A DNA stretch of 64,000 nucleotides, taken from assembly GCA_040755755.1 (NCBI GenBank), contig JBFLZW010000078.1:21328-85327 (forward strand), read 5' to 3'. The number at the start of each line of letters is the position of its first letter. The first letter of the stretch is position 1. Position numbers and translations under genes: made by a program. Positions 31,612 to 57,827 of the stretch are shown here, one piece after another. The stretch is from a bacterium (GTDB lineage Bacteria > SZUA-182 > DTGQ01). The notes under the pieces were generated by a model. It had not been told where the DNA came from. It saw nothing but the letters and a program-made list of their open reading frames with translations, and ran no database searches.

Positions 31612-32742
31612 ATGAAACAGCACTTCAGGCTGAGAAAATTTTGGGGTTTCGTATCAAGTTGGGTATGCTTTGTTCTCATCACCGGGACCGCAGGCTTCCA
31701 GGCGCAGGCCCTGGCTCAGGGAATCATCATTGATCATACCTGTACGGACATAAGCCGGATTCCGGAACACTGGATCCAGAAGGCCAAGGCCAGCCTGCGG
31801 ATCAGCTACGGGCATACTTCTCACGGCAGCCAGATCGTAAGCGGAATGGGAGTTATCAAAGGCGAACCTGGCTCGTTATACTGGTTTGACCGCAGCGGGA
31901 CTCAAGGCGGTCTCTCTCTTCATGACTGCGAGCCAAGTGGTGATCTCGGGAACCCTGACCGTACGAGCTGGGCCAAAAGAACCCGCGATCTTCTCGACAA
32001 ACCAGGCAATGACCGGAATCTCATCATCTGGTCCTGGTGCGGCCAGGTGTCCACTGCCTCGGAGCAGGACATTACAACCTATCTCGATCTGATGAGCCAG
32101 CTTGAGCAGGATTATCCCGATGTAACCTTCGTCTATATGACCGGACATCTGGACGGCGGAGGCAGGAACGGAAACCTGAACAAGCGCAATGAACAGATTC
32201 GGGAGTTTTGCCGGGCAAAAAATAAGATCCTGTTCGATTTCGCCGATATTGAAAGCTATGACCCCGACGGCAATTACTTCCTGGATAAAGCGGCTCATGA
32301 CAATTGCGACTACCAGGATGGATCGGTGAGGAAGAATTGGGCCAGGGAGTGGTGTGCTGCCAATCCGGGTAAATGTTCCTCATGCACCTGCGCTCATTCG
32401 CAATCCCTGAACTGCGACCTCAAAGGACGGGCTTTCTGGTGGATGCTGGCCAGGCTTGCCGGATGGAATCCTGAGGCCGTCGAATGTAACGGTGACCTTA
32501 ATCAGGATGGAGGGATTACACCGCAGGATGCCCTGATCGTTTTTCGGTGTTATTTTAATCTTGGCCCATGCTCTGTGTGCACCGATGTGAACCAGGACAG
32601 CGTAATTACCCCGGCTGATGCACTTTGCCTGTTCAAGAGGTTTTTAGGGCTGCCTTCCTGCTTCGACGGGGTGAGTTGGCAAAAAGCAGTCTACCCCCCT
32701 GGGTTTTGGGGGGACCTTTCCGGAGGGATTTGCCGGGGATAA
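31612..32742 (+). CDS. Secreted protein with C-terminal Cys-rich dockerin
   Basis: A 376-aa exported protein. The signal peptide is FWGFVSSWVCFVLITGTAGF, with cleavage near ALA-QGII. The N-terminal domain (about 37-280) has SYGHTSHGSQIVSG, LIIWSWCGQVS, FVYMTGHLDGGG and a Cys-rich end. The SYGHTSHGSQ and WCGQ motifs are shared by uncharacterised secreted proteins; the fold could be an SGNH/GDSL-like hydrolase but no clear catalytic triad is assigned. Residues about 285-345 form a type-I dockerin-like module: CNGDLNQDGGITPQDALIVF, then CTDVNQDSVITPADALCLF, with paired calcium loops and extra cysteines. It shares that module with proteins at 42054 and 55203. The ribosome binding site is GGAGG, close to ATG 31612. 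Confidence 0.82.
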   Translation: MKQHFRLRKFWGFVSSWVCFVLITGTAGFQAQALAQGIIIDHTCTDISRIPEHWIQKAKASLRISYGHTSHGSQIVSGMGVIKGEPGSLYWFDRSGTQGGLSLHDCEPSGDLGNPDRTSWAKRTRDLLDKPGNDRNLIIWSWCGQVSTASEQDITTYLDLMSQLEQDYPDVTFVYMTGHLDGGGRNGNLNKRNEQIREFCRAKNKILFDFADIESYDPDGNYFLDKAAHDNCDYQDGSVRKNWAREWCAANPGKCSSCTCAHSQSLNCDLKGRAFWWMLARLAGWNPEAVECNGDLNQDGGITPQDALIVFRCYFNLGPCSVCTDVNQDSVITPADALCLFKRFLGLPSCFDGVSWQKAVYPPGFWGDLSGGICRG

Positions 32743-32767
32743 AAGGCCAGCAGGGAGGAGATGGCCC

Positions 32768-33184
32768 TTACTCCCCAAACAACTCCCTTTCGGAAAGGGA
32801 TTGCAGATAAGCTACACCTGCTCGCTTGAATTCTTCAAGAGGAAGAGACTGATTGAGCTCATTGATCCGGCAGCGAACCGCAGGAGATATCGTGATCCGA
32901 CACCGCTGCTGCCGCACCGGGCAGTTGGCGGTCAGGGCGCACTGGCCGGTACTTTCAACCCGCACGGGAATATCTTCTCCCAGTACGGTACGGACTCCAT
33001 CACGGATGCACTGCGATTTTCCTTCCAGAATGATTTCGTAAGCCGGAGAGCTGATATCCTGCATCCGCTCTTTCATGCGCAGGGCCAGCGAGACACCGTA
33101 AAATAAACTCGGACATATGTGGCCATGCACTTTCCCGGCCTGCTCAAGCTGCACCTGCAGATGAGCATTCTCCCTCATAATCAT
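32768..33184 (-). CDS. FmdE-like (formylmethanofuran dehydrogenase subunit E) family protein
   Basis: A 138-aa protein with the FmdE signature HGHICPSLFYGVSLALRMKE and a C-terminal Cys-containing region (CALTANCPVRQQ). In that family the N-terminal His/Cys cluster binds metal. The open frame extends to 33235, but those codons translate an intergenic-type repeat. The ATG at 33184 has GGAG about 6 bp before it, so it is preferred. No methanofuran genes are present; most bacterial members have unknown roles. It is the last gene after prkA-yeaH-spoVR on the same strand, about 100 bp downstream. Confidence 0.75.
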   Translation of the reverse strand: MIMRENAHLQVQLEQAGKVHGHICPSLFYGVSLALRMKERMQDISSPAYEIILEGKSQCIRDGVRTVLGEDIPVRVESTGQCALTANCPVRQQRCRITISPAVRCRINELNQSLPLEEFKRAGVAYLQSLSERELFGE

Positions 33185-33225
33185 TCTTTTCTCCAGTCTC
33201 TTCCAAAGATTAACCAGAGTTTTTT

Positions 33226-33290
33226 CTCTGTGCACCTCTGTGTCTCTGGGCTTCTCTGGGGTGTCCTTTGTATTTGCCTTTGTCTTTTCA
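33226..33290. repeat. CTCTGTGTCTCTGG / CAAAGGCAAA-type repeat
   Basis: It reads CTCTGTGCACCTCTGTGTCT then CTGG, with TTTGTATTTGCCTTTGTCTT downstream. The reverse complement (AAGACAAAGGCAAATACAAA, then CCAGAGACACAGAGG) matches 23540-23605 in order and spacing. Confidence 0.75.
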
Positions 33291-34745
33291 GTCGTTCCAG
33301 CGGGAGGAGCTTGGCTGTCTCACTTCCTTGATCTCGAACTGATCGCCGTAGTCGTAATGAAGCTGATAATTCCGGCCCTTTAAAACCGTCTCCATCACTA
33401 CCGGACGGCTCCAGAGCCGGTACAGGTAGCGCATGGTATGCTGGGCATATCCCAGATCAAGCTCACGGCCATCATATTGGTGGCGCAGGAGAAGCTTCTG
33501 CTGGTGCTCGTAATTGGCATCGATGATATGGATGACCGGTACCCGGTTCATGCCCACATTCAGGATCAGGGTATCCCGGACTTTTTTCCAGTTCTCCTCA
33601 TCGGAGACTTTGGTAATGACCCGGTCATTGCCCTGCTGCTCGTGCTGGAAAAGGTCAAGCTCCTGCATCAGCTCTCTGGTCAGATACTGGCGCAGGAAGG
33701 ACTGATCCCGGTCCGATTCCCTGATCTGGAAGAGTTTTTTCAGCCCTTCGCCTCCGGGAAGACCCAATTCCTCCCTGTCTTCGCGTTCCGGGTTTTCCCA
33801 TCGCTGGAAGATATTTTCAAACATCTTGAAACCAAGGTGATAGGGATTCAGGCCGCCCACATGGGGACAGATCACCTGGTTGTGCCGCTTCATGAATTCA
33901 AAATGCAGTCCCTGGGGAAGGTCTAGGCGGTTCAGGATCTGGTAGTGCCAGTAGCTGGCCCAGCCTTCATTCATGATTTTGGTTTCAATCTGCGGCAGAA
34001 AGTACTGGTTTTCTTCGGCTACAATGGTCAGCAGGTCTTTTTGCCAGTCTTCGAGCAGAGAATTGTAGTCCCGGATAAAGGATATCAGATCCTCCTCGGG
34101 CTCGAAGGGGATTTTATGAATATCAGGAGCCACATAGGCGGGCCTTCCTTTCAGGTAGTCAAAATCCTCATACTGCTTTTGAGCCCGTTCGAGGGCCTGA
34201 TTGCGCTGCTCCTTCAATGAGAGTCTCCGGACCCGCAGGTTGCGCCGGCTCTGATATCTCAGGGCATGGGCCGCATCGATAATTTCCTCCACCGCCCGCT
34301 CACCGATGCTGGGATCTTCGATGTACTCGCGGATGCGGTCCGCATGGGACTTGAACATCTCGATCACATAGCCTGAGGGGGTATTGGCGAAGGTGATGTT
34401 GTTCTTAAAGAAGTCATTATGTCCGTAAACATGGGCAATGGTCAAAATCTGAAGCAGCAGGGTGTTGTCTTTCATCAGATACGCCAGGCAGGGATTGGAA
34501 TTAATGACCATTTCATACGGCAGGCCGCTGACTCCCAGTTTGTACATTGTTTTCTGGCGCTCGAAGGCCTTGCCGAAAGACCAGTGCGGGTAATGAGAAG
34601 GCATGCCGGTATAGGCCATGTAGCCGAGCATATCGTTATGGTCGCAGATTTCAAATTCCTGCGGATAGCAGTCCAGCCCGACCTCATGCACTATTTTGAG
34701 GATTTTTTCATCCCATTCTTTTAAATCCTTGATTTGATAATTCAT
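33288..34745 (-). CDS. spoVR: SpoVR-family protein
   Basis: A 485-aa SpoVR homologue of usual length. Visible motifs include the start MNYQIKDLKEWDEKILKI, then GMPSHYPHWSFGKAFERQKT, GLPYEMVINSNPCLAYLMKD and IAHVYGHNDFFKNN. NEGWASYWHYQILNRLDLPQ and IHIIDANYEHQQKLLLRHQY lie further on. The family is linked with spore cortex formation in Bacillus and with stationary-phase/stress responses in Gram-negatives; biochemical activity is not established. The ATG overlaps the yeaH-like stop (34742-34745), so it is translationally coupled. It is the third gene of the classical prkA-yeaH-spoVR operon. Confidence 0.95.
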   Translation of the reverse strand: MNYQIKDLKEWDEKILKIVHEVGLDCYPQEFEICDHNDMLGYMAYTGMPSHYPHWSFGKAFERQKTMYKLGVSGLPYEMVINSNPCLAYLMKDNTLLLQILTIAHVYGHNDFFKNNITFANTPSGYVIEMFKSHADRIREYIEDPSIGERAVEEIIDAAHALRYQSRRNLRVRRLSLKEQRNQALERAQKQYEDFDYLKGRPAYVAPDIHKIPFEPEEDLISFIRDYNSLLEDWQKDLLTIVAEENQYFLPQIETKIMNEGWASYWHYQILNRLDLPQGLHFEFMKRHNQVICPHVGGLNPYHLGFKMFENIFQRWENPEREDREELGLPGGEGLKKLFQIRESDRDQSFLRQYLTRELMQELDLFQHEQQGNDRVITKVSDEENWKKVRDTLILNVGMNRVPVIHIIDANYEHQQKLLLRHQYDGRELDLGYAQHTMRYLYRLWSRPVVMETVLKGRNYQLHYDYGDQFEIKEVRQPSSSRWND

Positions 34746-35911
34746 CCTTCATTCCTCACCTTGGCCCGGTCCCTGCTCAGGAATTTTTTCAGGGCAGGCC
34801 AGACATCTTCTTTGCTGCGGATACCAAGAATGACAAAATTTTCAGTTGCCAGGGGCTCGAAGATTTTCATCATCGATCCCCAGGAGAAGGTGTCAAAGGG
34901 TTTGATTTCGCCATAGCCAAACAGGTTGCAGATCTGCTTGAGCTCCTGGGCATATCTGAGCGCTTCCTGATTGTCCTCGGTAAAGTTATCCCCGTCCGAG
35001 CAATGAAAAGCGTAGATATTCCACAGCGACGGATGATATCGCTCCTTGATGATCTCGAGGGCCTTTTTATAGCCTGACGAGATCATGGTTCCACCCGATT
35101 CGCCCCGGTGGAAGAACTCATTTTCAGTCACTTCCTTGGCCTCGGTATGGTGAGCGATGAATACAACTTCGACGTTCTGGTACCTGCGGCGTACAAACTG
35201 GTACAGGAGGAAATAGAAACTCCTGGCCAGATATTTTTTGGTGATATCCATGGATCCCGAGGTATCCATGACACAGAAGACCACGGCATTCGAATGCTCC
35301 TTGATATCGACCACGATCCGGTTATAGCGCAGGTCATTCTCGTGGAAGGGAAAACGGTCCTCCTCCTCCACATGACTGGCGATCTTGCGGCGGATGTGCT
35401 CCTTCATGGTCCATCGGCGGTTCAGCCGGGGCCGGATGCCAAGGTGCTTGACCCCTTTGGGCTTCATGAGCCGCTCGGACTCAATGATATGGAAGCGCTT
35501 TCGCTCCATGTCCGGCAACTCGAGATCTTCGAACAGATAATTGATGGCCTCCTCCAGGGTGATTTCGGTTTCGTAGATGTCATCACCCGGCCGGTTTCCC
35601 GGTCCGGCCGGTCCGGTCCCCTCATTCTGGGGATTCCCTTTCTGCACCACGTCTCCCGGCTTGGCCTGGCCGTTTCCGGTGCCTACGTCAGGATTGTTAT
35701 GGCCGAAAATAAACTGGTACTCCTTGATCCCCCGGATAGGGATCTTGATCCGCTTGTCGCCGCTCTGGCCGATAATCGACTCCTCGGAAATGATATTCTG
35801 GATATTCTGCTTGATCGCCTCTTTCACCTTTTCCTTGTGGCGTTTGCGATCTCTGGCGCTGCGGTCACTTCCGCGGGCGGCACCGCGCTGAAAGGTTCGA
35901 AATATGGTCAT
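34742..35911 (-). CDS. YeaH/YhbH (DUF444) family protein
   Basis: A 389-aa protein of the DUF444 family. A basic N-terminus (MTIFRTFQRGAARGSDRSAR) is followed by an acidic/basic region, KRIKIPIRGIKEYQFIFG and a C-terminal VWA-like domain. The MIDAS motif DTSGSMD is intact, followed by TEAKEVTENEFFHRGESGGT. Such proteins work with the PrkA kinase in stress and nutrient responses; E. coli YeaH is the model. It starts 15 bp after the prkA stop and overlaps spoVR by 4 bp, which confirms a three-gene operon. Confidence 0.94.
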   Translation of the reverse strand: MTIFRTFQRGAARGSDRSARDRKRHKEKVKEAIKQNIQNIISEESIIGQSGDKRIKIPIRGIKEYQFIFGHNNPDVGTGNGQAKPGDVVQKGNPQNEGTGPAGPGNRPGDDIYETEITLEEAINYLFEDLELPDMERKRFHIIESERLMKPKGVKHLGIRPRLNRRWTMKEHIRRKIASHVEEEDRFPFHENDLRYNRIVVDIKEHSNAVVFCVMDTSGSMDITKKYLARSFYFLLYQFVRRRYQNVEVVFIAHHTEAKEVTENEFFHRGESGGTMISSGYKKALEIIKERYHPSLWNIYAFHCSDGDNFTEDNQEALRYAQELKQICNLFGYGEIKPFDTFSWGSMMKIFEPLATENFVILGIRSKEDVWPALKKFLSRDRAKVRNEG

Positions 35912-35926
35912 GGGAAAATCACTCCC

Positions 35927-37867
35927 TTAATCTTTCCAAAGGTTATTGGCAGCATAGCGCAAAACCACCTCACAGCAGTGGGGGCAGTAATTATTGAATT
36001 CAATCATGGTCTTGACCATAATCTCGTATTTTTCGTTCTGCTCCCTGTCCCGGGTTTTGGCTTTGGTGACAATGCGCGAAAGATCCCGGACCGAGGTCAT
36101 CAGTTTTTTCTCGATGGCATCGCGAAGCGGTGCATAAGACTTGTAATTCACTTTTTCACCACGCCTGAGCAGGGCGAACATATAACTGGTGACATCCTGC
36201 CGGAAGCCTTCAGCCGCAGAGACGGTAATGCCGATCTGCTCCTCGATGGAGCGAAGAAGCTTCTGATCAGGCTCAAGCTCTTCCTTGGTATTGGGGTCCT
36301 TGACTTTGGTCCGGTTCACGTAGGCTTCGGCATGGTCCAGGTAATTCTGGAACAGGGTTTCCGCCTGCTCGGCATAGGAATGGACGAAAGCCTTGGTGAC
36401 TTCCTTTTCCAGGATATCCAGATACTCCTTGTGCAGGGTGTCCTGCAAAAAGCCAAGATAGCGCTTTCGCACATCATCGGCCAGGCTCATCTCCTTCACC
36501 TGGGCGATCATGGCCTCGCGGATGGAAATGGGGTTGATGCAGTTATGCTCGGCCTCCGAGATGGCATTATCGATGCTCTTCATGACAAAGCGGGTGGAGA
36601 TGCCGGACATTCCTTCATTGACTGCCTCTTCCCGCAGCTCTTCGGCATCGATCTTCTGGTGATAGCCCTTTTCGACGATTTCCTGGCCATTATAGAGCTT
36701 CAGCTTGGTCATCAGGTCGCACTTGTTGGTGGGCTGAAGCCTGGTCAGAATGGCGAACATCGAGGCGATCTCGATGGTATGGGGAGCGATATGCGCCGTA
36801 AATTTGCTCCGGTTAATAATCTTTTTGTATATTTTGACTTCCTCGTCCAGCTCCATCACATAGGGAACTTCCACCTTGACGATACGGTCAAGAATGGCTT
36901 CGTTGGTGTGGTCCGCTTTGAATTTCTCCCACTCGGCTTCATTGGAATGGGCCAGAATCACGCCGTCGAAGTAAATCATCGAGTGCTTGCCGGGCGCAGG
37001 AATCATTTTTTCCTGGGTGGCCGTGATCATGGTATGCAGATACTCAGTTTCATTTTTGAACACCTCGATGAATTCCACAATTCCCCGGTTTCCGGCGTTA
37101 AAAGCACCGTTCAGGGAGAGAACTCGCGGGTCATCTTCTGAGTACAGGTCAAGTTTGGAAATATCCTCACTGCCGATCAGGATTGAGGTGTCCTGGTTGT
37201 TGGGATCAACCGGCGGAACAACGCCGATTCCCCGGCGCGAGCGAATGGAAAAATCCACGGTTTCCACGGGGAATTTCTCGTATTCCTTATTAAATTCGTT
37301 TTTCAGACGGAACCGGCAGATAGGACAGAGGTCTCCTTCAATGGGAATGCCAAGGAGCTTTGAAAAATCTTCCCGCAGATGGTGCGGGAGGAGATGGAGG
37401 GGCTCCTCATGCATCGGACACCCCTTCAGGCAGTAGATGGGGTCCGTCTCCTCAAGACCGGCTTTCAGCTTCTCCATCAGGCTCGATTTTCCGGCTCCCA
37501 CCGGGCCTACCAGATACAGTACCTGCCTGCTTTCCTCACCACCCATGGAGGCAGAGTGAAAGTAGCGGACAATCTGATTGATCACCTTATCCATGCCGAA
37601 AAATTCATTCTCGAAAAAGGCATACTTGCGCACGGTCTCGTGCCGTCGAAGCCTGCGCAGCCTCGGATTATCTTCCGGATGCTCTACCCGGACTCCCGGT
37701 TCGGTAATTACCTTGTAAAGACGGCCATGAGCCAGTTGAGCAATGGCAGGATTTTCTTTCAGTATTTCCAGGTAATCAAGAAATGTTCCTTCGAAATGCT
37801 TTCGATTGCGCTCTTCTCGATCCTTTCGGATCAGCGTTTTAAAATCGACATTATTCGACACAGACAT
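35927..37867 (-). CDS. prkA: PrkA-family serine protein kinase / AAA ATPase
   Basis: A 646-aa protein. The N-terminal part contains the AAA-type Walker A LVGPVGAGKSSLMEKL (about residues 117-132), a Walker-B-like region near IVEFIEVFKNETEYLHTMIT, and the PrkA-specific segments GCPMHEEPLHLLPHHLREDF and CPICRFRLKNEF. The C-terminal region is PrkA kinase-like and ends near FNNYCPHCCEVVLRYAANNL. PrkA (YeaG in E. coli) affects stationary-phase adaptation, and AAA+ protease function has been reported for a Bacillus homologue. A 677-aa open frame on the opposite strand is a shadow. It is the first gene of the operon; the 515-bp upstream gap probably holds its promoter. Confidence 0.96.
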   Translation of the reverse strand: MSVSNNVDFKTLIRKDREERNRKHFEGTFLDYLEILKENPAIAQLAHGRLYKVITEPGVRVEHPEDNPRLRRLRRHETVRKYAFFENEFFGMDKVINQIVRYFHSASMGGEESRQVLYLVGPVGAGKSSLMEKLKAGLEETDPIYCLKGCPMHEEPLHLLPHHLREDFSKLLGIPIEGDLCPICRFRLKNEFNKEYEKFPVETVDFSIRSRRGIGVVPPVDPNNQDTSILIGSEDISKLDLYSEDDPRVLSLNGAFNAGNRGIVEFIEVFKNETEYLHTMITATQEKMIPAPGKHSMIYFDGVILAHSNEAEWEKFKADHTNEAILDRIVKVEVPYVMELDEEVKIYKKIINRSKFTAHIAPHTIEIASMFAILTRLQPTNKCDLMTKLKLYNGQEIVEKGYHQKIDAEELREEAVNEGMSGISTRFVMKSIDNAISEAEHNCINPISIREAMIAQVKEMSLADDVRKRYLGFLQDTLHKEYLDILEKEVTKAFVHSYAEQAETLFQNYLDHAEAYVNRTKVKDPNTKEELEPDQKLLRSIEEQIGITVSAAEGFRQDVTSYMFALLRRGEKVNYKSYAPLRDAIEKKLMTSVRDLSRIVTKAKTRDREQNEKYEIMVKTMIEFNNYCPHCCEVVLRYAANNLWKD

Positions 37868-38382
37868 GTTTTTCCTCCCTGCGACCTCTCCTTAATAAGT
37901 AAGGATACAGTCAAAAAATCTTATAAATACTTAACCTGGTGGTAAAAATCGATCCCCGTGGCAATATTGTGGCAATATGAGGATCTTAAGCAAGCAAAGG
38001 TACAATACAAGTAAATGCATAAAACTTGCCAATACAATTCCACCAAGAATATATTTACTTACTCCTATATCAGAGATCAATATGGCAACTAACTTAATAG
38101 ACGGACTCTTATCCTATTATGTTATTGGATGAAAAAAACAAAATCAAGGACGAGATAGAAAGCAGGATTGTTTAATTTTAGAACATGGGTGGTCAGATAA
38201 GTGGCAGGGGGAGGAGGGAAGGCTCATAAGTACAGGAGAAGGTTCACAATGTCGGTTTTTTGGTTAATGCGTTGAATTTGCTGTTATTAATAGCAGCCCT
38301 TTCCTCCTCGTCCCTGAAGGGGAGAGGGCTCTTTTGGTAAGTAGCCTGCTGTTCATGACATTGCCCTCCTGATGGACGACAA
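37868..38382. other. Intergenic region upstream of prkA
   Basis: A/T-rich, with no gene seen. GTGGCAATAT occurs twice in 37960-37980. A GC-rich palindrome with AGCCCT/AGGGCT arms lies at 38295-38330. I cannot point to a clear promoter. Confidence 0.4.
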
Positions 38383-39066: not shown

Positions 39067-39113
39067 ACGATGGGTCCTCAATCAGCGAAAAATACAACAA
39101 AAAACAGATCAAT

Positions 39114-40748: not shown

Positions 40749-40771
40749 TAGAAAAGGTTTATTGATACGGC

Positions 40772-41332
40772 CTATTGATGGTGAATGATCCTTTCGTGTT
40801 CTTCAAATCCTGCAGCCACCATTTCCAATTTCTTGTCCAGCCGATCTATTTTTCTATCCAGATGGTCCGTCTTTTCATCTATCTTTTTATCGAGTTGGAT
40901 GACCTTCTTATCGAGTTGGATGACCTTCTTATCAAGTCGGGCGACCTTCTTATCAAGTTGGATGACCTTCTTATCAAGTTGGATGACCTTTTTATCAAGT
41001 TGGATGACCTTCTTATCAAGTTGGACGACCTTCTTATCAAGTTGGACGACCTTCTTATCAAGTTGGATGACCTTCTTATCAAGTTGAGCTATCTTTTTAT
41101 CGAGTTGCTTATGCATGGTAAATATCATAGCCTGGGTTTCGTCAATTCTTTTATCCAGTTCCTCTGTCCGCCTGTCCAGCTTTTCACTTAAAGAGGCTAC
41201 TCCTTCAGCTACCACCTGAACCTTACCGGTAAGATCCTCAACCACGATGCCAAACCGATGCATAGTATCTTCCATGATACCAAACCGATGCATCATAACA
41301 CTTTCAATAAATTCTTTCAGTTCACTATCCAT
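40772..41332 (-). CDS. Coiled-coil protein of 11 near-identical heptads
   Basis: A 186-aa cytoplasmic protein with no membrane segment. The N-terminus contains MHRFGIMEDTMHRFGIVVED, a short duplicated element. A long coiled coil follows. Residues 76-152 are eleven heptads of the form QLDKKVI/V/A, and the C-terminal part continues with DEKTDHLDRKIDRLDKKLEM. Predicted structure is an extended parallel coil with Leu at core positions. Function is unknown; related repeat proteins are often called t-SNARE-like or apolipoprotein-like by similarity only. It is convergent with the RsmG-SPOUT gene (24-bp gap). No clear ribosome binding site can be assigned. Confidence 0.7.
   Translation of the reverse strand: MDSELKEFIESVMMHRFGIMEDTMHRFGIVVEDLTGKVQVVAEGVASLSEKLDRRTEELDKRIDETQAMIFTMHKQLDKKIAQLDKKVIQLDKKVVQLDKKVVQLDKKVIQLDKKVIQLDKKVIQLDKKVARLDKKVIQLDKKVIQLDKKIDEKTDHLDRKIDRLDKKLEMVAAGFEEHERIIHHQ
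40877..41107 (-). repeat. 21-bp minisatellite, 11 units, in frame
   Basis: Eleven 21-bp units (AAGTTGGATGACCTTCTTAT core on the plus strand) each encode one heptad. Units differ at a few positions (GGATGA or GGACGA, TCAAG or TCGAG). The repeat is in frame, so copy-number change would alter coil length without a frameshift. Confidence 0.9.
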
Positions 41333-42053
41333 GCTTTATATCCTTATTTTTTACTCCCCTCCCTTTATTTGTGAAAACAAGAAGCCGGAGGAAAAGACGA
41401 ATGAGAACCTGTGATACAGGAGTCCCATGCCTTTTTCGTTATTCTACAATATAAACCGGGAAATTGCAAACAGCTTGTTCAAGCAAATTGAGCATGACCT
41501 TAAGTTCCTGGATTCAGCTATGGCTGCGGCTATTATGGCTCTGCGGCTGTTGCCTTTATGGTATGAGTAAGCAGTATAAATGAAGAAGGAGACAAGGCAG
41601 CAGCAATAAGCCATTGGGATTCACTTTCGACTTGCTAAAGTTAACTGGAGTTATTATAATTTATCAATAGATTGCCTTATCTCGAAGAGAAGTTCCCCGG
41701 TAAAGTTATTGCTGGAGGAAAAATGGGTTTATTCCTCCCATTTTTCCGGTAAGGAGGTGAGATTGGATAAATAGAGATCATTAGTCTTAACGACCTGCGT
41801 GCATTATTCAATCTACAATTCAAGACTCAATAGTGTTGTACTCGATGATGAGCCCATTTGGTCCATCATCCAGTCCGCGCCTCCCCCCAACGGAACAAGA
41901 TGGCCACGGCAATGATACTCTCTTTCCCCCACAATCCATACACACAGCAGGACTCAGCGCCACCGCATTTACTCTGATACAAGCCACGATGATATAAACC
42001 CATGCCAAGGGCTCATGAACCAATCAGCTTTATCATTGGAAGGAGATAAGACC
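41333..42053. other. Long leader region of the cohesin-dockerin gene
   Basis: No gene is visible apart from weak shadows. It contains a near-consensus promoter (41632-41660) and an 11-bp perfect hairpin GGAAAAATGGG / CCCATTTTTCC (41717-41727 and 41737-41747). A Shine-Dalgarno-like GTAAGGAGGTGAG follows at about 41749. The transcript would carry a leader of nearly 390 nt before the start codon. Confidence 0.5.
41632..41660 (+). promoter_or_regulatory. Probable sigma-70 promoter of the cohesin-dockerin gene
   Basis: TTGCTA (41632-41637), a 17-bp spacer and consensus TATAAT (41655-41660). Confidence 0.55.
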
Positions 42054-44243
42054 ATGCAACATAACACCGGAAGCAGTACTGTCTTCTTGAATCAAGGCTT
42101 GGGGAGGATACCTGCCGCTGATAAGTTCGCATTCAAACTCGTGCCACTCATGGTGGCTGTCATTCTTCTGTTGATGATCTCAGCAGGTATGGCTGCCGAT
42201 TCTGCTACCTGTCCGCCACCTGACGGTACTCCAAAGAATGGTGATGCCAACGGAGACGGATGTAATGATTGGCTTATCGATAGAGAGACCGACCGCCAGG
42301 GAAACCAGGTGGAAGTCTGGTGTCTGGACCTGGGGGCTGCTGGTCCCGGTGGCGGTGATTCCTTTGGCTACAGGTATATCCCCCAAGGGGGAACGCCTGT
42401 CTGGGTAGGCAAGTGTGCATTTAATGGCGGAATTAACCGGTACAGCAAGTCCATGGATCCCAATACCGGTCAATGGAAGGGATTGCAGTGGAAAAACTGG
42501 GATGATAGCAGTACTGATGGTGAAGGAACACCAGGGGTGATCGATGACTGGTTTTGGACCTATGATATACCCCAGAGAAAGTTGACTACCAAAAAAACGC
42601 ACGATAACAGAACCATTGCTCAACAGGATGGCAATGCGCCGGTGGATTTTGGCGATATTACCTTCGCGAGTCTGCCCGTTCAAGGCCCTGACAATAATAT
42701 CCTGGCCCTGATGGTTGATCCGGTTATCACCCTGGTCAATCTCTCCACCGGCCCGCTCTGGCATTATGGCCTGCGCACGCCGCCAGCCCATAGTGAGTAC
42801 AGCATCGATCCCTGGCTGCTGGCGACCGAGATCAAAGCAGGTGACAGGCTGATCATGAAGGGTCTAGACGCTGTCGAGGCTTACGTTGAGGGAACCGCAG
42901 CGCTCCCTGAATTTGGTGCCTGGATGCTCACCTCCATGACTGAGGACTCGGTTACCTTCACGGCCTCAGTTGATGCCATTATTCCACCAGGCACCTTGAT
43001 CGATGGTTTCAGCTTTTTCAGCACAGGTTCCGGAGGGCAGATCGAGTGGATGACAGCCGGTGAGAAGATCAGCTTTGTCGAAAAAGTATATGGTCCTGTT
43101 GCCCAGCCCTCATCAGGTATGATCTTCAACGAAGATGATTCAGGGATTCTCGATATTGGAGGCACCGCTGCCAGGGCAGGAATGGGCACCCGGATACCAG
43201 TCAGAATCCAATCCACAGCCAGGGACATCTATGCCTTTGGCTTTGATGTAACCTATGATCCAAAGGTGCTGGAGTACACAGGCCATGAGCGGGGATATCT
43301 GGTGGCCTCATTCAATATCTTCGAGGTCAACCGTATCCTTCCCGGCAGGATAAGGATAGGAGGGGTATCAGCTCAATCCGCTATCCCTGCAGGGGCAATC
43401 GGCCACCTGGTCTGGTTGAACTTTACTGTCATTGGCGGCCGGGACAGGGAGTGTTATCCCCTGAGCATTGAGGGAGTGTCCGATGATCTGGCCCGGGCTC
43501 CGGCAAGTGGCGGGTATTTCTGCGTCCACAATTGCACCGGCGATCTCAACGGAGATGGAACAATGACCCCGGGCGATGCCCTCATTGCTTTTCAGTGCTA
43601 CTTGAGCATCGGCCCCTGCCCTGATTGTGCGGATATAAATTATGACGGTCAGGTCACTCCGGCGGATGCACTTTGCATCTTCAGGCAATATATGGGTTCT
43701 CCCGGTTGTTTTCCCGATGAAATCCTCCCCCGGAAAAAGTCCTGCCAGTTAGAGCTTCCGATACCTGACGAGAATATAAGCCTTACCCTTTCTCAACCGG
43801 TTATTAAAGCTCCCGGAGAATCTGTTGCCGGTAAGGTGGTCATTCATGCCGGACAATGGAACAAGGACGAATTGCCCGGCCTTGAATCCTTCAGTTTTGT
43901 CCTGAGGATTGAGGACCCTTCGGTGGCTCTGTTCCCTGACCAGGCCACCTCCTTTGAGCATATTTTTGATTCTTCCCTGATAGCAGACGATGGGTCCTAT
44001 CAATTTGCCTTTAAGCTGGTCGGCTCTCATCCCGGACAGATTTCCGTACTTCCTTCCCTGAAGTGGACAATCCTTGGTGAAGGAGCATGTGCTCTGGCTA
44101 TTAATGGGATTTATGCTGGCTGTGCTCTTGGTGAACAATTGAATAGCAATTGCGTCTGCACAGCTATGGCCGATATGCCCGCTCCTGGATCCTTGGCGTG
44201 CAGTCTGTTTCCGGAAACTTTTCGGGCAGCATGGAGGTCATGA
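42054..44243 (+). CDS. Secreted cohesin-dockerin protein
   Basis: A 729-aa exported protein. ATG 42054 follows AAGGAGATAAG; an upstream in-frame start at 42015 is less likely. A hydrophobic segment (LVPLMVAVILLLMISAGMAA) is the signal peptide, preceded by an unusually long N-region. Residues about 55-360 are an unrecognised beta-rich domain. Residues about 364-490 form a cohesin-like module: GGTAARAGMGTRIPVRIQST, IYAFGFDVTYDPKVLEYTG and IGHLVWLNFTVIGG. A Cys-rich dockerin (about 494-552) follows directly: CTGDLNGDGTMTPGDALIAF and CADINYDGQVTPADALCIF. The C-terminal 175 residues form another beta-sandwich, perhaps a degenerate cohesin. Compare 31612 and 55203. Confidence 0.85.
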   Translation: MQHNTGSSTVFLNQGLGRIPAADKFAFKLVPLMVAVILLLMISAGMAADSATCPPPDGTPKNGDANGDGCNDWLIDRETDRQGNQVEVWCLDLGAAGPGGGDSFGYRYIPQGGTPVWVGKCAFNGGINRYSKSMDPNTGQWKGLQWKNWDDSSTDGEGTPGVIDDWFWTYDIPQRKLTTKKTHDNRTIAQQDGNAPVDFGDITFASLPVQGPDNNILALMVDPVITLVNLSTGPLWHYGLRTPPAHSEYSIDPWLLATEIKAGDRLIMKGLDAVEAYVEGTAALPEFGAWMLTSMTEDSVTFTASVDAIIPPGTLIDGFSFFSTGSGGQIEWMTAGEKISFVEKVYGPVAQPSSGMIFNEDDSGILDIGGTAARAGMGTRIPVRIQSTARDIYAFGFDVTYDPKVLEYTGHERGYLVASFNIFEVNRILPGRIRIGGVSAQSAIPAGAIGHLVWLNFTVIGGRDRECYPLSIEGVSDDLARAPASGGYFCVHNCTGDLNGDGTMTPGDALIAFQCYLSIGPCPDCADINYDGQVTPADALCIFRQYMGSPGCFPDEILPRKKSCQLELPIPDENISLTLSQPVIKAPGESVAGKVVIHAGQWNKDELPGLESFSFVLRIEDPSVALFPDQATSFEHIFDSSLIADDGSYQFAFKLVGSHPGQISVLPSLKWTILGEGACALAINGIYAGCALGEQLNSNCVCTAMADMPAPGSLACSLFPETFRAAWRS

Positions 44244-45670: not shown

Positions 45671-45674
45671 TACA

Positions 45675-47369: not shown

Positions 47370-47455
47370 GAACACAGAGGCACAAAGATTATATACTTTG
47401 TGAAAACGGGTGGTGATTCGGTACATTTCTCTGCGCCTCTGCGCTTTACAATCTT
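47370..47455. repeat. CACAGAGGCACAAAG / CTCTGCGCCTCTGCGC imperfect inverted repeat
   Basis: ACACAGAGGCACAAAG (about 47371-47386) and CTCTGCGCCTCTGCGCTTT (about 47431-47449) are roughly complementary, with ATACTTTGTG in between. The words belong to the same family as the repeats at 23579 and 33226. Confidence 0.6.
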
Positions 47456-47538
47456 TTTTCCCTAATCGATTACTCATAAAATTACTCACGGTAAAAATAC
47501 CCAAATGGTCAAACTCTTGTCAACCTTCAATTACCCCG

Positions 47539-48081: not shown

Positions 48082-48129
48082 GGTAAGACCTCCTTCCTCG
48101 ATTTAATCTGACTTCTTTGCTTATTTGGT

Positions 48130-48158
48130 AATATAACCAATTAACCAAAAATTGTCAA
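48130..48158 (-). promoter_or_regulatory. Strong sigma-70 promoter of paralogue B
   Basis: On the minus strand TTGACA (48158-48153), a 17-bp spacer and TATATT (48135-48130). Transcription would start about 40 nt before the ATG at 48081. Confidence 0.75.
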
Positions 48159-48357
48159 CGCTTTTAAGAAGGGCTTATTGATTACTGACCATTGGCTGTT
48201 AACTGTAAGTTAATGGATGAAAAAGTATAATCATAAACTTTTGCTTTCTCACCTCCCTTCATGCAATAACCCGGAAAAACCTTCCCACGAGCTGGAAAAT
48301 AGCTTTCCAGCTCGTATTCTGGATAGTTCACAAGGCTTTTTTTGTTATGTCTTCTCC

Positions 48358-50586: not shown

Positions 50587-51224
50587 GGGACCTTCTCTCC
50601 TTGTTAATGAGTATGTTATTCAGAAGCTGGGGCTCTGGTAAATGAGTTAAGGCTCGTTTCAATAATATTGGGAGTTTTGAAGAGGTTTAAAGTCGTGCCC
50701 GAAGATTTTCCAAAAGTGAACCTTCTTCACTTGGCTCATATTTCCGTGGTAATTTATACTTTGCTGGGTAATGACAAGCCGAATGACGGCCTATCGCGAG
50801 AGCTATTGACTTATTATGAGCAAGCGTTTAAAACGCGCAGGAAAGAGTTGCTGGATTACTCTGTACCTCATCAAACCACCTGAATAGTTATAATTGCATT
50901 AATCATGCCGAACAGGTCTCATACCCGTATTCATTAGTAAGCGTTTTTTCAAATAAATGGCCCACTAGGACCAGGACCGAACCAGAAATTTCGGTGAGGA
51001 ATATGTGTATGGTATGCAAAGTTATTCACAGGTCATGGATTTTATGATTTAACTTCTTGTTTATTTAGTCTTTTTTCCCCTAAGTATATGAAACAGAATA
51101 CAATTCCTTGAATCTGTCTGAAAACTATCCGACAAAACTACACGCCCCAGGAGGCTGTCCAAGGATGGAGTCGAAATTGACAATCTCCATTCTCAGACAG
51201 CTTCCTCGAATATCATCTCCCCTG
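50587..51224. other. Intergenic region with one possible gene remnant
   Basis: Apart from the open frame at 50611-50883, nothing clear is seen. The stretch 50884-51224 holds no visible gene, promoter or RNA. Confidence 0.4.
50611..50883 (+). pseudogene. Possible remnant of an unidentified gene
   Basis: An open frame without a good start encodes about 90 residues with plausible protein character: LKRFKVVPEDFPKVNLLHLA, HISVVIYTLLGNDKPNDGLS and LLTYYEQAFKTRRKELLDYS. Possible starts are TTG 50668 and GTG 50695; no ribosome binding site supports them. I recognise no family. It may be a degraded gene or chance. Confidence 0.25.
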
Positions 51225-51953
51225 TCATGGCTGAGGCTCCTCATAGGTACCGTCACCTTTGCCAAGAAGAATGGAAATATGCCCGGAATTCTCATTGGCT
51301 ACAGCTAAATCCACCCTGCCGTCCCGGTTAAAATCAGCCGAGATAATCGAGGATGGCTCATCCCCTGCCGGATAGTGGACAGCCTCCCTGAAGGTGCCAT
51401 CCCCCCTGTTCAGCAGAACGGATACGGTCCCGGAACCCTCGTTGGCTACAGCCAGGTCAGGTTTTACATCCCGGTTAAGGTCAACCGAAACCATCGATGA
51501 TGGTTCATTTCCAACCGGATAATAAACGGTATCTTCAAAGGTGCCGTCACCCTTGCCAAGAAGGATGGAGATTGTGCCTGATTCCTCATTAGCCACTGCC
51601 AGATCCTCATTGCTGTCCCAGTTGAAATCAGCCAGAATAATCGAGGAGGGCTCTTCTCCAACCGCATAGTGAGCAGCCTCGGTGAAGGTGCCATCACCCT
51701 TGCCGAGAAGAATAAGAACAGTCGAGGATTCTTCAGCGGTTGCAGCCAAATCGAGATTTCTGTCCTGATTGAAATTTGCGACAATAACAGGTGAAGATGC
51801 CTTTTTCACCTTGGTCTTGACCGGCGTTGAAAAATGACTATCCGCTGCCTGAGCATGGCCAGCCGCCCGAACCGGCCTGCCCTGAATTGCAGCCAGACCG
51901 CACATGAGCATCAGGCAAAAAGGAAAGAGAATTTTTTTCCGTAAGTTTTCCAT
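51225..51953 (-). CDS. Secreted FG-GAP/VCBS-repeat protein
   Basis: A 242-aa exported protein. ATG 51953 behind GGGAG starts a signal peptide (ILFPFCLMLMCGLAAIQGRP, cleavage near VRA-AGHA). The mature part is four near-identical VCBS/FG-GAP repeats, each with ADFNWDSNEDLAVANEESGT, ILLGKGDGTF and PSSII-type ends. Each contains the calcium-binding pattern D-N-D--DLA, in which Asp and Asn residues of the N-W-D-S-N-E-D type are conserved. The repeats are only about 46 residues apart. Such domains form beta-propeller blades, so four alone would be short of a complete seven-bladed propeller; dimerisation or an unusual fold is possible. An extra upstream in-frame start is rejected. No anchor is seen. 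Confidence 0.8.
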   Translation of the reverse strand: MENLRKKILFPFCLMLMCGLAAIQGRPVRAAGHAQAADSHFSTPVKTKVKKASSPVIVANFNQDRNLDLAATAEESSTVLILLGKGDGTFTEAAHYAVGEEPSSIILADFNWDSNEDLAVANEESGTISILLGKGDGTFEDTVYYPVGNEPSSMVSVDLNRDVKPDLAVANEGSGTVSVLLNRGDGTFREAVHYPAGDEPSSIISADFNRDGRVDLAVANENSGHISILLGKGDGTYEEPQP

Positions 51954-52055
51954 GTCAATGTCTCCCTTAATGTTCAGAGTTGTGCTGCTCAAGTACACTC
52001 TTTCCATACTTGGTCGGAAAGTTTTCTCCAAACCCTGACTTACGGCAATATCCTA

Positions 52056-52084
52056 TTGAAAAATATCCCAAAAGCGTATATTAT
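52056..52084 (+). promoter_or_regulatory. Probable sigma-70 promoter of recD2
   Basis: TTGAAA (52056-52061), a 17-bp spacer and TATTAT (52079-52084), about 50 bp before the start codon. Confidence 0.5.
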
Positions 52085-52134
52085 AGCCATAATGATAACC
52101 ATAGGCGCTACCACGAGCATAAGGTTCAAATTTC

Positions 52135-54387
<2,253 letters not shown>

Positions 54388-54597
54388 GATAGCTATCTTC
54401 GGAAAATATGTCCGATGCAAGGGTAGAGAATATGTACAAGAGCCGATGGGAGGACAAAGGAGCAGGGAGAGAAGATGAGATAGAGAAGGCAGGACAAAGT
54501 TGATCAGACCTGACATTATGGGTAGCTTCTCTGAGTGAGGAAAGACACTCTCTGGCTCTGGCTCTGACAGGAGCCGCTTATATAAGGAGGTGGAATC

Positions 54598-55056
54598 ATG
54601 GCAAACGCAAATCAAGGAATTAGCCCACAGACACAGGCCAAGGAGGGCGATACCGTAAGGGTTCATTATACGGCCAGATTTATGGACGGCACGGTATTTG
54701 ACTCTTCAGTCATGCGTGAGCCTTTGGAATTTACCATAGGTGAGGGACTGCTCATACCCGGATTCGAGCAGGCAGTGGTCGGCATGCATCCCGGAGAATC
54801 GAAAACCGAACAGGTTTCGGCAGAGCAAGCTTATGGCCCTCATCGTGACGAGATGGTCCTTGAGGTTGATCGGAACCAATTTCCGTCAGGACTGGAACCG
54901 GAAGTTGGCCAGCAGTTACAGGTACGCCAGGCCAATGGACTCATAACCGATGTGACGGTAACCGATGTCCATGACTCGCGGGTAACCCTGGACGCAAATC
55001 ATCCACTGGCAGGAAAAGATCTGGTCTTTGATATTCAATTGGTTGAGATTGAATAA
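54598..55056 (+). CDS. FKBP-type peptidyl-prolyl isomerase (SlyD-like)
   Basis: A 152-aa protein of the SlyD-like FKBP class. Motifs in order are KEGDTVRVHYTARFMDGTVF, DSSVMREPLEFTIGEGLLIP, GFEQAVVGMHPGESK, AYGPHRDEMVLEVDRNQFPS and LDANHPLAGKDLVFDIQLVE. The insert-in-flap (IF) chaperone domain is present between the two FKBP halves, as in SlyD. No signal peptide and no metal-binding His-rich tail are seen, so it is probably cytoplasmic. The start ATG 54598 has AAGGAGGTGG upstream. It accelerates prolyl bond isomerisation and may assist folding of nascent proteins. It is convergent with the cohesin-dockerin beta-helix gene. Confidence 0.93.
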   Translation: MANANQGISPQTQAKEGDTVRVHYTARFMDGTVFDSSVMREPLEFTIGEGLLIPGFEQAVVGMHPGESKTEQVSAEQAYGPHRDEMVLEVDRNQFPSGLEPEVGQQLQVRQANGLITDVTVTDVHDSRVTLDANHPLAGKDLVFDIQLVEIE

Positions 55057-55133
55057 TTCCTTTCGGAGTGGATGTTTCACCGGGCGTTGAAAAGAGCCTT
55101 AACCAGGCCATCGGAACGCTGAGAAAAGCGACA

Positions 55134-55172
55134 GGTGACGCCGTGAAGTTCCAAAGACTTCACGGCGTCACC
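55134..55172. repeat. 16-bp perfect inverted repeat (GGTGACGCCGTGAAGT)
   Basis: The arms at 55134-55149 and 55157-55172 are exact complements around a 7-nt loop. It lies between two convergent genes and so may also act as a terminator. The GGTGAC/GTCACC ends are similar in layout to the GGGGTCAG/CTGACCCC element at 30323. Confidence 0.85.
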
Positions 55173-55202
55173 CCTGATCCCTCTGCGCCCTACCAGGGCC
55201 TA

Positions 55203-57827
55203 TTACATCGCAGTGGCACTGTAATCCTGACCATCATCTATACACTCATGGTTTTTACCCTGATCTTTTGGCACACAAACAGTGACACTTCCAGGACATT
55301 TTTTCCCGGCAGCGTCTGTTGCAGTAAACGAAATTTTATAGACCCGGCCATTACCCTTCTCCAAGCGCTCAGCGCGGAGGAAGGCTGTGTCTGTACCGAC
55401 CCCGGCAGCATCCGGAGCATTTTTATCCGCGAATAATCCTTTATCCGAGATTGTAGGCTCATCGCTGGTAATACTGGTAATGACAGGCTTGGCTACACCC
55501 AGAATGCCAACCTTGACCATTTTATTGTCAGGCGGCCATATCTCCGTTACACTGGGCTCGGCAATAATACCAGTGCATGAAGAGCATATGAGATCCGATC
55601 CGTCACAGTCCTGATCTTTACCATCCCCACACTTTTCTTTGGCTGCCGGGGAAATGGCTGGATCATTATCATCACAATCTGCAGGACCACATTCTCCGGC
55701 CTCGGCATAAAAACCATCTTTATCCTGATCTGTACATATTGGTTTATCAAAACAGGATGGCTGTCCCAAATATTTCTTAAACAGGCAGAGAGCATCGAGC
55801 GGAGTAACGGAGCCATCCCTGTTTACATCGACACAATCAGGACAGGTATCGAGTTTAAGAAAACATTTAAAAACAATAAGAGCATCCAATGGAGAAACGT
55901 TTCCGTCATGGTTGAGGTCTCCATTGCAATTATTGATCTTGACACAGCAGCATCCTCCTGTGGAGGAGAAATTGGCAAATCCATCGATCAGCTTATCTAC
56001 AGTCAAAGGATAGCACTTCTGTTCCTGCCCGCCTTTTACCTTGAATTTTAACTTGACCAGATAGCCGCTCGCCCCTTTTGGCATCCCGCTTCCGGTATCC
56101 AATCCTCCTATTCTCTGCCTGCCGGGAACTACCGTGTTCACTTCGAACATTTTAAAAGATTTTACTAAATCGCCTCGTTCCCAGCTTAAAAATTCCAATA
56201 TATCCGGATCATAGGTAACATCGAAGCCAAAGGAATAAACTGCGGACGGTGCAGAGTGTATCCGCACGGGGACAGTAATTTCATCACCCATACTCCCTTG
56301 AGCCCCTTCAATGTCGAGTGTGCCTGACTCCTGTTCCACACAGCCAGTCGGACATTTGTCCCCTCCTGCACAATCATCGTCTTTGCCGTTGCAGGAAATT
56401 TCAGTGGCCCCGGGATGGACGGTTTTATCTGTGTCATCACAATCCGTTTTATCTGATACATACCCTGAAGGAGGTGCACTGGCCTGAACCGTGTCGGCAG
56501 GATTTCCATAACCATCTTTATCTCCATCCCGATAGTAGGTGGTATAATTACATACTCCTTCATCTATCCTGCCATCGCAGTCATTGTCCTTGCCATCACA
56601 GACCTCTGAGCCGGGCTGAGGTGCAGTACAGGCAGTCCATTGGCCATTCTTGCAGGTTTTTTCTCCCGTGCCGCAGGCAGTTGAGCAGCTCTGGGTTAAA
56701 TCCTCATCTATCCTGCCATCGCAGTCATTGTCCTTGCCATCACAGACTTCGAGTTTAGGCTTGAGAATAGTACAGGCAGTCCATTGGCCATTCTCGCAGG
56801 TTTTTTCTCCCGTACCGCAGGCAGTTGAGCAGCTCTGGGTTAAATCCTCGTCTATCCTGCCATCGCAGTCGTTATCCTTGCCATCGCAGACCTCAGAAGT
56901 AACGTTACTACAGATAAAAAGCTCATAAGCTCCCATGTCATATCCAGCACCATAAGGCCTCGAGTTGCCATCCTTATCGAAAGAAGGGGCCCCCATACTG
57001 GTTCCGGCATCGATACAGGGTGAGGTAGGCTGCAAATGAAAATTTCCGGCGGTTCGATCAACAAAGAGAGGGTCAGCATCGATATTGCCTTCGCCGACAT
57101 AGTCCCCCTGAATATCAGAGTAGGTGACTGAGAGATCCAAATCTTTTTCATGGTAGATTTCATTTGGAACGTCATTCCAGAAAATGCAATTAGTAATACT
57201 CGGTAAAGAGGAATCGCAGTAAATCCCGCCACCGTTGATAGAACTATTTTCGAGTAAAGTACAATTGACAATGGTCGGTGAGGATGACGCGGTGCAATAA
57301 ATCCCGCCACCGGAACGGGTGGCAGTATTTCCATTTATGACACAATTAGCTATGATCGGCGAGGCGGTGGTGCAATAAATTCCACCACCGGAACGGCTGG
57401 CTCTGTTTTGAGTTATGGTACAGTTAATTATCCTCGGTGAGGAGATGTAGCAATATATTCCACCACCGAAGGTGACAGAACCATTTTTTATGGTAAATCC
57501 ATCCACAATAGAATCACTGTTCTCTTTACTGTGAAAACGGAACCCTCGACTTGAGTCCTGACAACTAATAATACAGTTTGAAGGACCATTTTCTGATTGA
57601 ACGGTAATTGCTTTACCATTAAAATCAAGGTCATTGTTCCCTTCTCCGGTGTAGGTTCCATCAGAAACCAACACAATGTCACCCGTGGCTGCAGCATCGA
57701 TTCCATCCTGGATTGTAGGCTGATCAGCCGGTACACGGATAATTGCTGCTCTGGCGCAGGGAATATAAATTAACGCTGATATCAAACCAAAGACCAGACT
57801 TAATGGTAATACCTTTGACTTTTTCAT
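55203..57827 (-). CDS. Secreted beta-helix / MopE-motif / cohesin-dockerin protein
   Basis: An 874-aa modular exported protein. The signal peptide is LVFGLISALIYIPCARA, followed by AIIRVPADQPTIQDGIDAAA. Residues about 30-300 form a right-handed parallel beta-helix with GGGIYC-type rungs (GGGIYCYISSPRIINCTI and similar). Residues about 310-430 carry three MopE-type metal-binding motifs (EVCDGKDNDCDGRIDE). Then come a Cys-rich linker, a cohesin (about 500-628: AVYSFGFDVTYDPDILEFLS and SGYLVKLKFKVKGG) and a dockerin (about 630-692: CNGDLNHDGNVSPLDALIVF and CVDVNRDGSVTPLDALCLF). Another DxDGxD-type loop and a C-terminal Ig-like domain (IWPPDNKMVKVGI, VYKISFTATDAAGKK) follow. Binding partners and ligands are not known. 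It is the largest secreted protein in the window. Confidence 0.85.
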   Translation of the reverse strand: MKKSKVLPLSLVFGLISALIYIPCARAAIIRVPADQPTIQDGIDAAATGDIVLVSDGTYTGEGNNDLDFNGKAITVQSENGPSNCIISCQDSSRGFRFHSKENSDSIVDGFTIKNGSVTFGGGIYCYISSPRIINCTITQNRASRSGGGIYCTTASPIIANCVINGNTATRSGGGIYCTASSSPTIVNCTLLENSSINGGGIYCDSSLPSITNCIFWNDVPNEIYHEKDLDLSVTYSDIQGDYVGEGNIDADPLFVDRTAGNFHLQPTSPCIDAGTSMGAPSFDKDGNSRPYGAGYDMGAYELFICSNVTSEVCDGKDNDCDGRIDEDLTQSCSTACGTGEKTCENGQWTACTILKPKLEVCDGKDNDCDGRIDEDLTQSCSTACGTGEKTCKNGQWTACTAPQPGSEVCDGKDNDCDGRIDEGVCNYTTYYRDGDKDGYGNPADTVQASAPPSGYVSDKTDCDDTDKTVHPGATEISCNGKDDDCAGGDKCPTGCVEQESGTLDIEGAQGSMGDEITVPVRIHSAPSAVYSFGFDVTYDPDILEFLSWERGDLVKSFKMFEVNTVVPGRQRIGGLDTGSGMPKGASGYLVKLKFKVKGGQEQKCYPLTVDKLIDGFANFSSTGGCCCVKINNCNGDLNHDGNVSPLDALIVFKCFLKLDTCPDCVDVNRDGSVTPLDALCLFKKYLGQPSCFDKPICTDQDKDGFYAEAGECGPADCDDNDPAISPAAKEKCGDGKDQDCDGSDLICSSCTGIIAEPSVTEIWPPDNKMVKVGILGVAKPVITSITSDEPTISDKGLFADKNAPDAAGVGTDTAFLRAERLEKGNGRVYKISFTATDAAGKKCPGSVTVCVPKDQGKNHECIDDGQDYSATAM

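What the first reader, a model, noticed from the sequence alone, without database searches (positions are those of the whole stretch)
31612..57827. Non-cellulosomal set of cysteine-rich dockerins and cohesins
Three secreted proteins (31612, 42054, 55203) carry nearly identical dockerin-like modules: two CxGDLNxDG/PxDAL loops with extra cysteines around xCPDC and a closing PSCF/PGCF. In two of them the dockerin directly follows a cohesin-like module in the same chain (FGFDVTYDPxxLE, GxLVxLxFxVxGG). The DNA between them has no cellulases or scaffoldins. Known cohesin-dockerin pairs mediate tight calcium-dependent assembly in cellulosomes; cohesins and dockerins outside cellulosomes are known in scattered bacteria and archaea. 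A self-assembling extracellular network of cohesin-dockerin fusions is an inference, as is disulfide support by the added cysteines.
Basis: partly seen in the sequence, partly recalled or inferred. Interest (0 to 1): 0.62.

Follow-up and report, generated by a model that had tools for sequence, protein, structure and literature searches.

The report
Surface cohesin–dockerin network without cellulases
An uncultured bacterium carries about 40 exported proteins built from the plug-and-socket modules (dockerins and cohesins) that other microbes use to build cellulose-degrading machines, but here the plugs are cysteine-rich and mostly sit on proteases, adhesin-like and redox proteins, which suggests a general-purpose assembly system on the cell surface.

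Summary
All three window proteins carry a dockerin, and two carry a cohesin directly in front of it; every match is above the Pfam cut-off, and the cohesin fold is predicted confidently. These are 3 of about 40 such proteins in the genome: 17 with dockerins only, 16 with cohesin then dockerin, 7 with cohesins only. A congener (MAG HOT.CON.50) has 25, and 18 reciprocal-best-hit pairs keep the same module class.

The genome has no CBM3 or GH9, and no glycoside hydrolase was found on the tagged proteins scanned. Cohesins split into two supported clades. One occurs only in dockerin-less proteins, including a lipoprotein with two cohesins that is conserved in the congener. The other is mostly fused to a dockerin through a linker of a few residues. 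A two-gene pair (solo cohesin; papain-like protease–cohesin–dockerin) recurs in three genera. Related cysteine-rich pairs occur in several other phyla.

Most likely this is a non-cellulosomal surface assembly: receptor cohesins hold dockerin-bearing proteins, and the fused proteins act as adaptors. Binding itself is untested. Such systems are known (Archaeoglobus, ANME archaea, seep SRB, Cloacimonadota), so this is a new variant of a known kind.

The parts
31612..32742 (+). Secreted 376-aa protein, dockerin-only; N-terminal domain without a Pfam match (motifs read like an SGNH-type hydrolase, not shown)
   Evidence: PF00404 24.6 bits; ortholog with dockerin and the same SpoVR/DUF444/PrkA neighbours in the congener, 75.6% identity over 287 aa
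32482..32667 (+). Cysteine-rich dockerin module
   Evidence: 115.2 bits, E 6.7e-33 with profile A1
42015..44243 (+). Secreted 742-aa protein with cohesin then dockerin, 175 residues behind the dockerin
43137..43523 (+). Adaptor-clade cohesin
   Evidence: PF00963 27 bits; 166 bits with the own profile; clade by tree
43530..43712 (+). Cysteine-rich dockerin module, a few residues behind the cohesin
   Evidence: 116.2 bits, E 3.1e-33
55203..57827 (-). Secreted 874-aa protein: beta-helix, MopE repeats, cohesin, dockerin, further MopE motif
55944..56330 (-). Adaptor-clade cohesin, the genome's best Pfam cohesin match
   Evidence: PF00963 60.4 bits, E 7.3e-16; predicted cohesin fold, Z 18.9 to 5nrm_A
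55746..55931 (-). Cysteine-rich dockerin module, a few residues behind the cohesin
   Evidence: PF00404 43.5 bits; 116.1 bits, E 3.2e-33

Best explanation
The window holds three members of a genome-wide, genus-conserved, non-cellulosomal cohesin-dockerin system. Receptor cohesins, in a two-cohesin lipoprotein and other dockerin-less secreted proteins, capture calcium-loaded dockerins carried by about 33 exported proteins. About half of those also carry a cohesin, almost always of the adaptor clade, directly in front of the dockerin, so each docked protein can hold a further dockerin and the complex can grow by chaining or branching at the outer surface. Six conserved cysteines probably staple the dockerin with disulfides, and others the cohesin. 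Shown: modules, census, conservation, order, the two cohesin clades, and the cohesin fold prediction. Inferred: binding in trans, receptor and adaptor roles, surface location, disulfides.
For: Pfam matches above cut-off and a profile census. Cohesin fold predicted at pLDDT 92.4, Z 18.9. Both calcium loops kept in 48 dockerins. Eighteen reciprocal-best-hit pairs in the congener keep the module class. Cohesins split 100/98 into a dockerin-less clade and a mostly fused clade. Two-cohesin lipoprotein conserved, with a canonical lipobox in the congener. Adjacent gene pair solo cohesin / protease-cohesin-dockerin in three genera. Two-cohesin gene flanked by two dockerin genes, with orthologs on one contig in the congener. 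Dockerins occur at N-terminal, internal and C-terminal positions.
Against: No binding, calcium or disulfide data. Receptor and adaptor roles rest on architecture. The three window genes are not clustered. The lipobox of the window species' own lipoprotein (FPGC) is atypical. pTM 0.70 and no coordinates leave the cohesin-dockerin arrangement within one chain open.
Confidence: 0.62

Rival explanations
1. The cohesin-dockerin tandem is an intramolecular structural tail: the two modules pack on each other within one chain, stabilised by calcium and disulfides, and do not assemble proteins.
For: Fixed order and a linker of only a few residues in 28 measured tandems; cysteines at the junction.
Against: 17 proteins in the genome have a dockerin and no cohesin, and 7 a cohesin and no dockerin. 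Solo-cohesin genes lie beside dockerin genes. The short linker should hinder canonical docking within a chain (inference).
Confidence: 0.15
2. The dockerin is mainly a sorting or anchoring tag for exported proteins, read by a secretion or attachment machine.
For: Many dockerins end the protein exactly (tail 0 in about half of the copies).
Against: N-terminal and internal dockerins exist, with tails of 131 to 655 residues. No Por secretion tail in the genome. Both calcium loops and the repeated T-P-x-D motif are kept.
Confidence: 0.08
3. It is chiefly a protein-degrading complex, a cellulosome-like 'proteolysome', in which dockerin-bearing peptidases are the main cargo.
For: A papain-family C1 peptidase and two C25 peptidases carry dockerins, and so does one polysaccharide deacetylase. 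In KSB1 the modules sit on proteins that read as subtilisin-like and carboxypeptidase-like. Ca. Stygibacter has dockerins on C25 and S8 peptidases (PMC8542988).
Against: Most carriers are propellers, beta-helices, HYR, VWA, CotH and MopE proteins with no clear degradative role.
Confidence: 0.13

Closest known systems
Clostridial cellulosomes (type I cohesin-dockerin)
   Same: Both module families match Pfam above cut-off; the cohesin fold is the same (Z 18.9 to 5nrm_A); duplicated calcium loops
   Different: No CBM3 or GH9 in the genome, no long multi-cohesin scaffoldin seen, cysteine-rich dockerin, Gly at the cohesin column that is acidic in the clostridial sequences aligned
Non-cellulosomal cohesin/dockerin proteins of ANME archaea and Archaeoglobus (PMC9012536; structure 2xdh)
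   Same: Many dockerin and cohesin proteins without cellulases; cohesin fold close to 2xdh (Z 18.5); variable cargo
   Different: ANME scaffoldin-like proteins have up to five cohesins plus a dockerin, and the cargo includes ABC substrate-binding proteins; here the carriers, dockerin cysteines and a dockerin-less receptor clade differ
Cohesin/dockerin adhesins of ANME-partner sulfate reducers (PMC10553843)
   Same: Adjacent cohesin/dockerin domains in one protein, Gram-negative bacteria; related cysteine-rich tandems were found here in two Desulfobacterota genomes
   Different: Described as adhesins of syntrophic partners; sequence relation to those exact proteins was not tested
Ca. Stygibacter (Cloacimonadota) cellulosome-like complex (PMC8542988)
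   Same: C-terminal dockerins on a C25 peptidase and other enzymes; inferred extracellular complex
   Different: It has a 3,755-aa scaffoldin with CBM2/CBM3 and a C-terminal attachment domain; neither CBM3 nor a Por tail was found here

Membership tests
Dockerin type I (PF00404) | Profile match above the curated cut-off | tested here: met
   24.6, 25.3 and 39.7 bits against 22.9
Dockerin type I (PF00404) | Two calcium-binding loops with the acidic positions kept | tested here: met
   D5, D9, D16, D35, D46 in 47-48 of 48 copies, with N/D/T at 7 and 37 and D/N at 39
Dockerin type I (PF00404) | Calcium-dependent binding to a cohesin | not testable with these tools
   Needs purified modules
Cohesin (PF00963) | Profile match above the curated cut-off | tested here: met
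   27 and 57.7 bits against 24.1; 25 places in the genome
Cohesin (PF00963) | Cohesin jelly-roll fold | tested here: met
   AF2 pLDDT 92.4; best structural matches are all cohesins, Z 18.9, rmsd 1.7, 128 aligned
Cohesin (PF00963) | Acidic recognition residue of the clostridial type I dockerin-binding face | tested here: not met
   Gly in 48 of 49 copies at the column aligned with Asp of the clostridial cohesins shown; that this residue is key in clostridia is recalled, not tested
Cellulosome | Scaffoldin with several cohesins and a CBM3 | tested here: not met
   No CBM3 in the genome; at most two full cohesins per protein
Cellulosome | Dockerin-bearing cellulases | tested here: not met
   No GH9 in the genome; no glycoside hydrolase on the carriers scanned. 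GH48 and other families were not searched genome-wide
Non-cellulosomal cohesin-dockerin system | Cohesins and dockerins in one genome on non-cellulolytic exported proteins | tested here: met
   About 40 proteins, cargo by Pfam
Type IX secretion cargo | Por secretion C-terminal domain | tested here: not met
   No PF18962 match at E <= 0.001 in the genome

The most novel reading that the evidence does not exclude
A surface network with its own recognition code (dockerin T-P-x-D in both loops against a Gly-bearing cohesin face) that chains through short-linker cohesin-dockerin adaptors and docks redox enzymes, including a Tat-exported, heme-motif-bearing CO dehydrogenase and a diheme protein, beside proteases: an extracellular catalytic and redox matrix rather than a degradative cellulosome.
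Probability: 0.12. Interest if true: 0.78.

Novelty: new variant of a known kind. Interest (0 to 1): 0.52.

Why it matters
Cohesin-dockerin binding is among the strongest known protein-protein contacts (established knowledge), yet what it does outside cellulosomes is an open question. This genus offers a compact testable case: a small conserved receptor clade, a lipoprotein anchor candidate, a two-gene cohesin / protease-dockerin pair conserved in three genera, and about 30 clients with one shared cysteine-rich dockerin. If binding holds, it provides new, possibly redox-sensitive and orthogonal, cohesin-dockerin pairs and suggests how uncultured bacteria organise enzymes at their surface.

Tried and rejected
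C-terminal sorting tag: rejected as the main reading because dockerins also occur at N-terminal and internal positions and no Por tail was found. Cellulosome: rejected. Structure of the 376-aa dockerin protein from two sequences: pLDDT 43.7, not used; the SGNH idea rests on reading motifs only. The dockerin was not predicted on its own; in the tandem model it has the expected two helices, but the structure search was filled by the cohesin part. The model's coordinates and PAE were not available, so disulfide distances and cohesin-dockerin packing could not be read. Peer et al. 2009 on non-cellulosomal modules is not held. One Pfam call failed on a wrong frame and was redone in part; the C22 409-aa protein was not rescanned.

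Full report
Observation. The three ORFs exist as described. Pfam finds a type I dockerin in all three and a cohesin directly in front of it in two. The other two dockerins are 61% and 63% identical to that of the 55203 protein, so 'closely related' is more exact than 'nearly identical'. The genes between them are ordinary (FmdE, SpoVR, DUF444, PrkA, GidB/SpoU, methyltransferase, ArsP). The three genes do not form a cluster.

Genome-wide census. The genome (5.26 Mb, 97.6% complete) has 25 Pfam cohesin places and 29 Pfam dockerin places. A profile from its own cysteine-rich dockerins finds 33. After collecting the loci and rescanning with own profiles there are 40 proteins: 17 with dockerins only, 16 with cohesin(s) then dockerin, 7 with cohesins only. 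A few are fragments or weak matches: C36:62132 (57 aa), C42 (contig end), C30 (half a dockerin), C33:150742 (another type). The congener G001 has 25 such proteins. Its contig lengths equal those of MAG HOT.CON.50 (JAILZY), found by name in genome contigs. Eighteen reciprocal best hits between the two species, made on sequence outside the modules, all keep the same module class. The rest of the class has few such modules: 0-9 cohesins and 0-9 dockerins per genome. The large set is therefore mainly a genus-level expansion of something older.

Anatomy of the dockerin. In 48 copies both calcium loops are kept (D5, N/D/T7, D9, D16 and D35, N/D/T37, D/N39, D46), and each ends in the motif T/S-P-x-D-A-L in most copies. 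The two halves resemble each other, as in dockerins that can bind in two orientations (established for clostridial dockerins; inferred here). Six cysteines (2, 23, 30, 33, 49, 60) are in most copies; C23 and C30 are in all 48. C2 and C33 are missing together in a few copies, but single losses also occur and some are alignment shifts. Pairs C23-C30, C2-C33 and C49-C60 are suggested, not shown.

Anatomy of the cohesin. The tandem of the third window protein was predicted from 16 sequences at pLDDT 92.4, pTM 0.70. The best Foldseek hits listed are all cohesins. VIA-align gives Z 18.9 (rmsd 1.7, 128 aligned) to A. cellulolyticus ScaB cohesin 6 and Z 18.5 (rmsd 1.6, 122 aligned) to the non-cellulosomal cohesin of A. 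fulgidus. At the column that is Asp in the clostridial cohesins aligned there is Gly in 48 of 49 copies. The dockerin loops carry Pro-x where clostridial ones often have Ser-Thr (recalled). This suggests a separate recognition code; it is an inference. In adaptor cohesins C106 and C129 occur together (26 both, 10 neither, 2 single).

Two cohesin classes. A maximum-likelihood tree of 49 cohesins splits with support 100/98 into 11 found only in proteins without a dockerin and 38 of which 33 are in dockerin proteins. The first class includes a protein with two cohesins separated by a long low-complexity spacer and a lipoprotein-type signal (507 aa; ortholog 635 aa with a canonical LAGC lipobox). 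It also includes a two-cohesin HYR protein flanked by two dockerin proteins, with orthologs of all three on one contig of the congener, a cohesin with a Tyr/Gly-rich tail, and a 174-aa single cohesin. I read these as receptors. The second class sits a few residues in front of the dockerin, always in that order in both genomes. I read these as adaptors.

A conserved gene pair. The 174-aa cohesin lies beside a papain-family protease that ends in cohesin and dockerin. The same two genes, next to each other, are in two other genera of the family (G002, G003), at 44-48% identity for the cohesin and 52-54% for the protease. A conserved neighbour pair of one free cohesin and one dockerin protein is the best genomic hint here that cohesin and dockerin meet in trans.

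Cargo. Pfam on the carriers gives PQQ-type propellers, right-handed beta-helices, MopE repeats, HYR and Ig-like domains, CotH, VWA, NHL, a squalene-hopene-cyclase-like toroid, META, C25 and C1 peptidases and one polysaccharide deacetylase. No CBM3 and no GH9 occur in the genome. GH48 and other cellulase families were not searched genome-wide. Two dockerin proteins are redox proteins. One is an anaerobic CO dehydrogenase catalytic subunit with a Tat-like signal and a CxxCH motif in front (TIGR01702 578 bits against a cut-off of 478). The other is a GEGP diheme protein (451.5 bits against 300). The dockerin-bearing CO dehydrogenase was matched over its dockerin part only here; the other CO dehydrogenases in the class match without it, so this fusion looks lineage-specific.

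Spread. Related tandems with cysteines in the dockerin occur in two Desulfobacterota genomes, Latescibacterota, KSB1 and Gemmatimonadota. In the last three the carriers end in tails that read like T9SS-type sorting signals and often have a second cohesin behind the dockerin (read by eye).

What it most likely does. Receptor cohesins at the surface capture dockerin-bearing exported proteins, and cohesin-dockerin proteins act as adaptors that let the complex grow. Shown: these are cohesins and dockerins by profile, they are numerous, conserved and ordered, and the cohesins fall in two classes. Inferred: binding, surface location, roles and disulfides.

Comparison with known systems. Non-cellulosomal cohesins and dockerins have been described in ANME archaea (PMC9012536), in their sulfate-reducing partners with adjacent cohesin/dockerin domains (PMC10553843), and in Cloacimonadota with dockerin-bearing C25 peptidases (PMC8542988). 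This is therefore a new variant of a known kind. What sets it apart is the cysteine-rich dockerin, the short-linker tandem, the receptor-clade lipoprotein, and redox cargo.

Noticed in passing
L042:6713-8968 (G000 contig C55): An anaerobic CO dehydrogenase catalytic subunit (TIGR01702 578 bits) with a Tat-like signal, a CxxCH heme motif in front and the cysteine-rich dockerin at its end; other CO dehydrogenases in the class lack the dockerin.
   Followed up: partly
L043:8618-9982 (G000 contig C76): A GEGP-motif diheme protein (NF041762, 451.5 bits) with a C-terminal cysteine-rich dockerin.
   Followed up: no
L120:4412-7277, L203:150-2906, L204:3509-6236: Conserved two-gene pair in three genera: a 165-174-aa solo cohesin and a papain-family protease ending in cohesin and dockerin.
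   Followed up: yes
L019:9814-11685 (G000 contig C10): A beta-helix protein with a different dockerin type without the six-cysteine pattern (EYDVGL repeats), beside a cohesin-dockerin gene; the congener has a PF00404 match in a similar place.
   Followed up: no
L027 about 15100-15270 (C36:62132) and L124 (C18:27494): Short dockerin fragments, one with a stop inside, which look like gene remnants.
   Followed up: no
G017 and G064: Two other genomes, one unnamed and one Gemmatimonadota, each give 46-47 weaker matches to the dockerin profile, a large dockerin set of another type.
   Followed up: no
L092, L093, L094, L095: In KSB1, Latescibacterota and Gemmatimonadota, proteins with cysteine-rich dockerins and cohesins (often cohesin-dockerin-cohesin) end in tails that read like T9SS-type sorting signals (QNYPNPFN).
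   Followed up: no
window 40883-41086: Tandem array of a 21-base unit, 9.7 copies at 93% match, overlapping a short minus-strand ORF.
   Followed up: no
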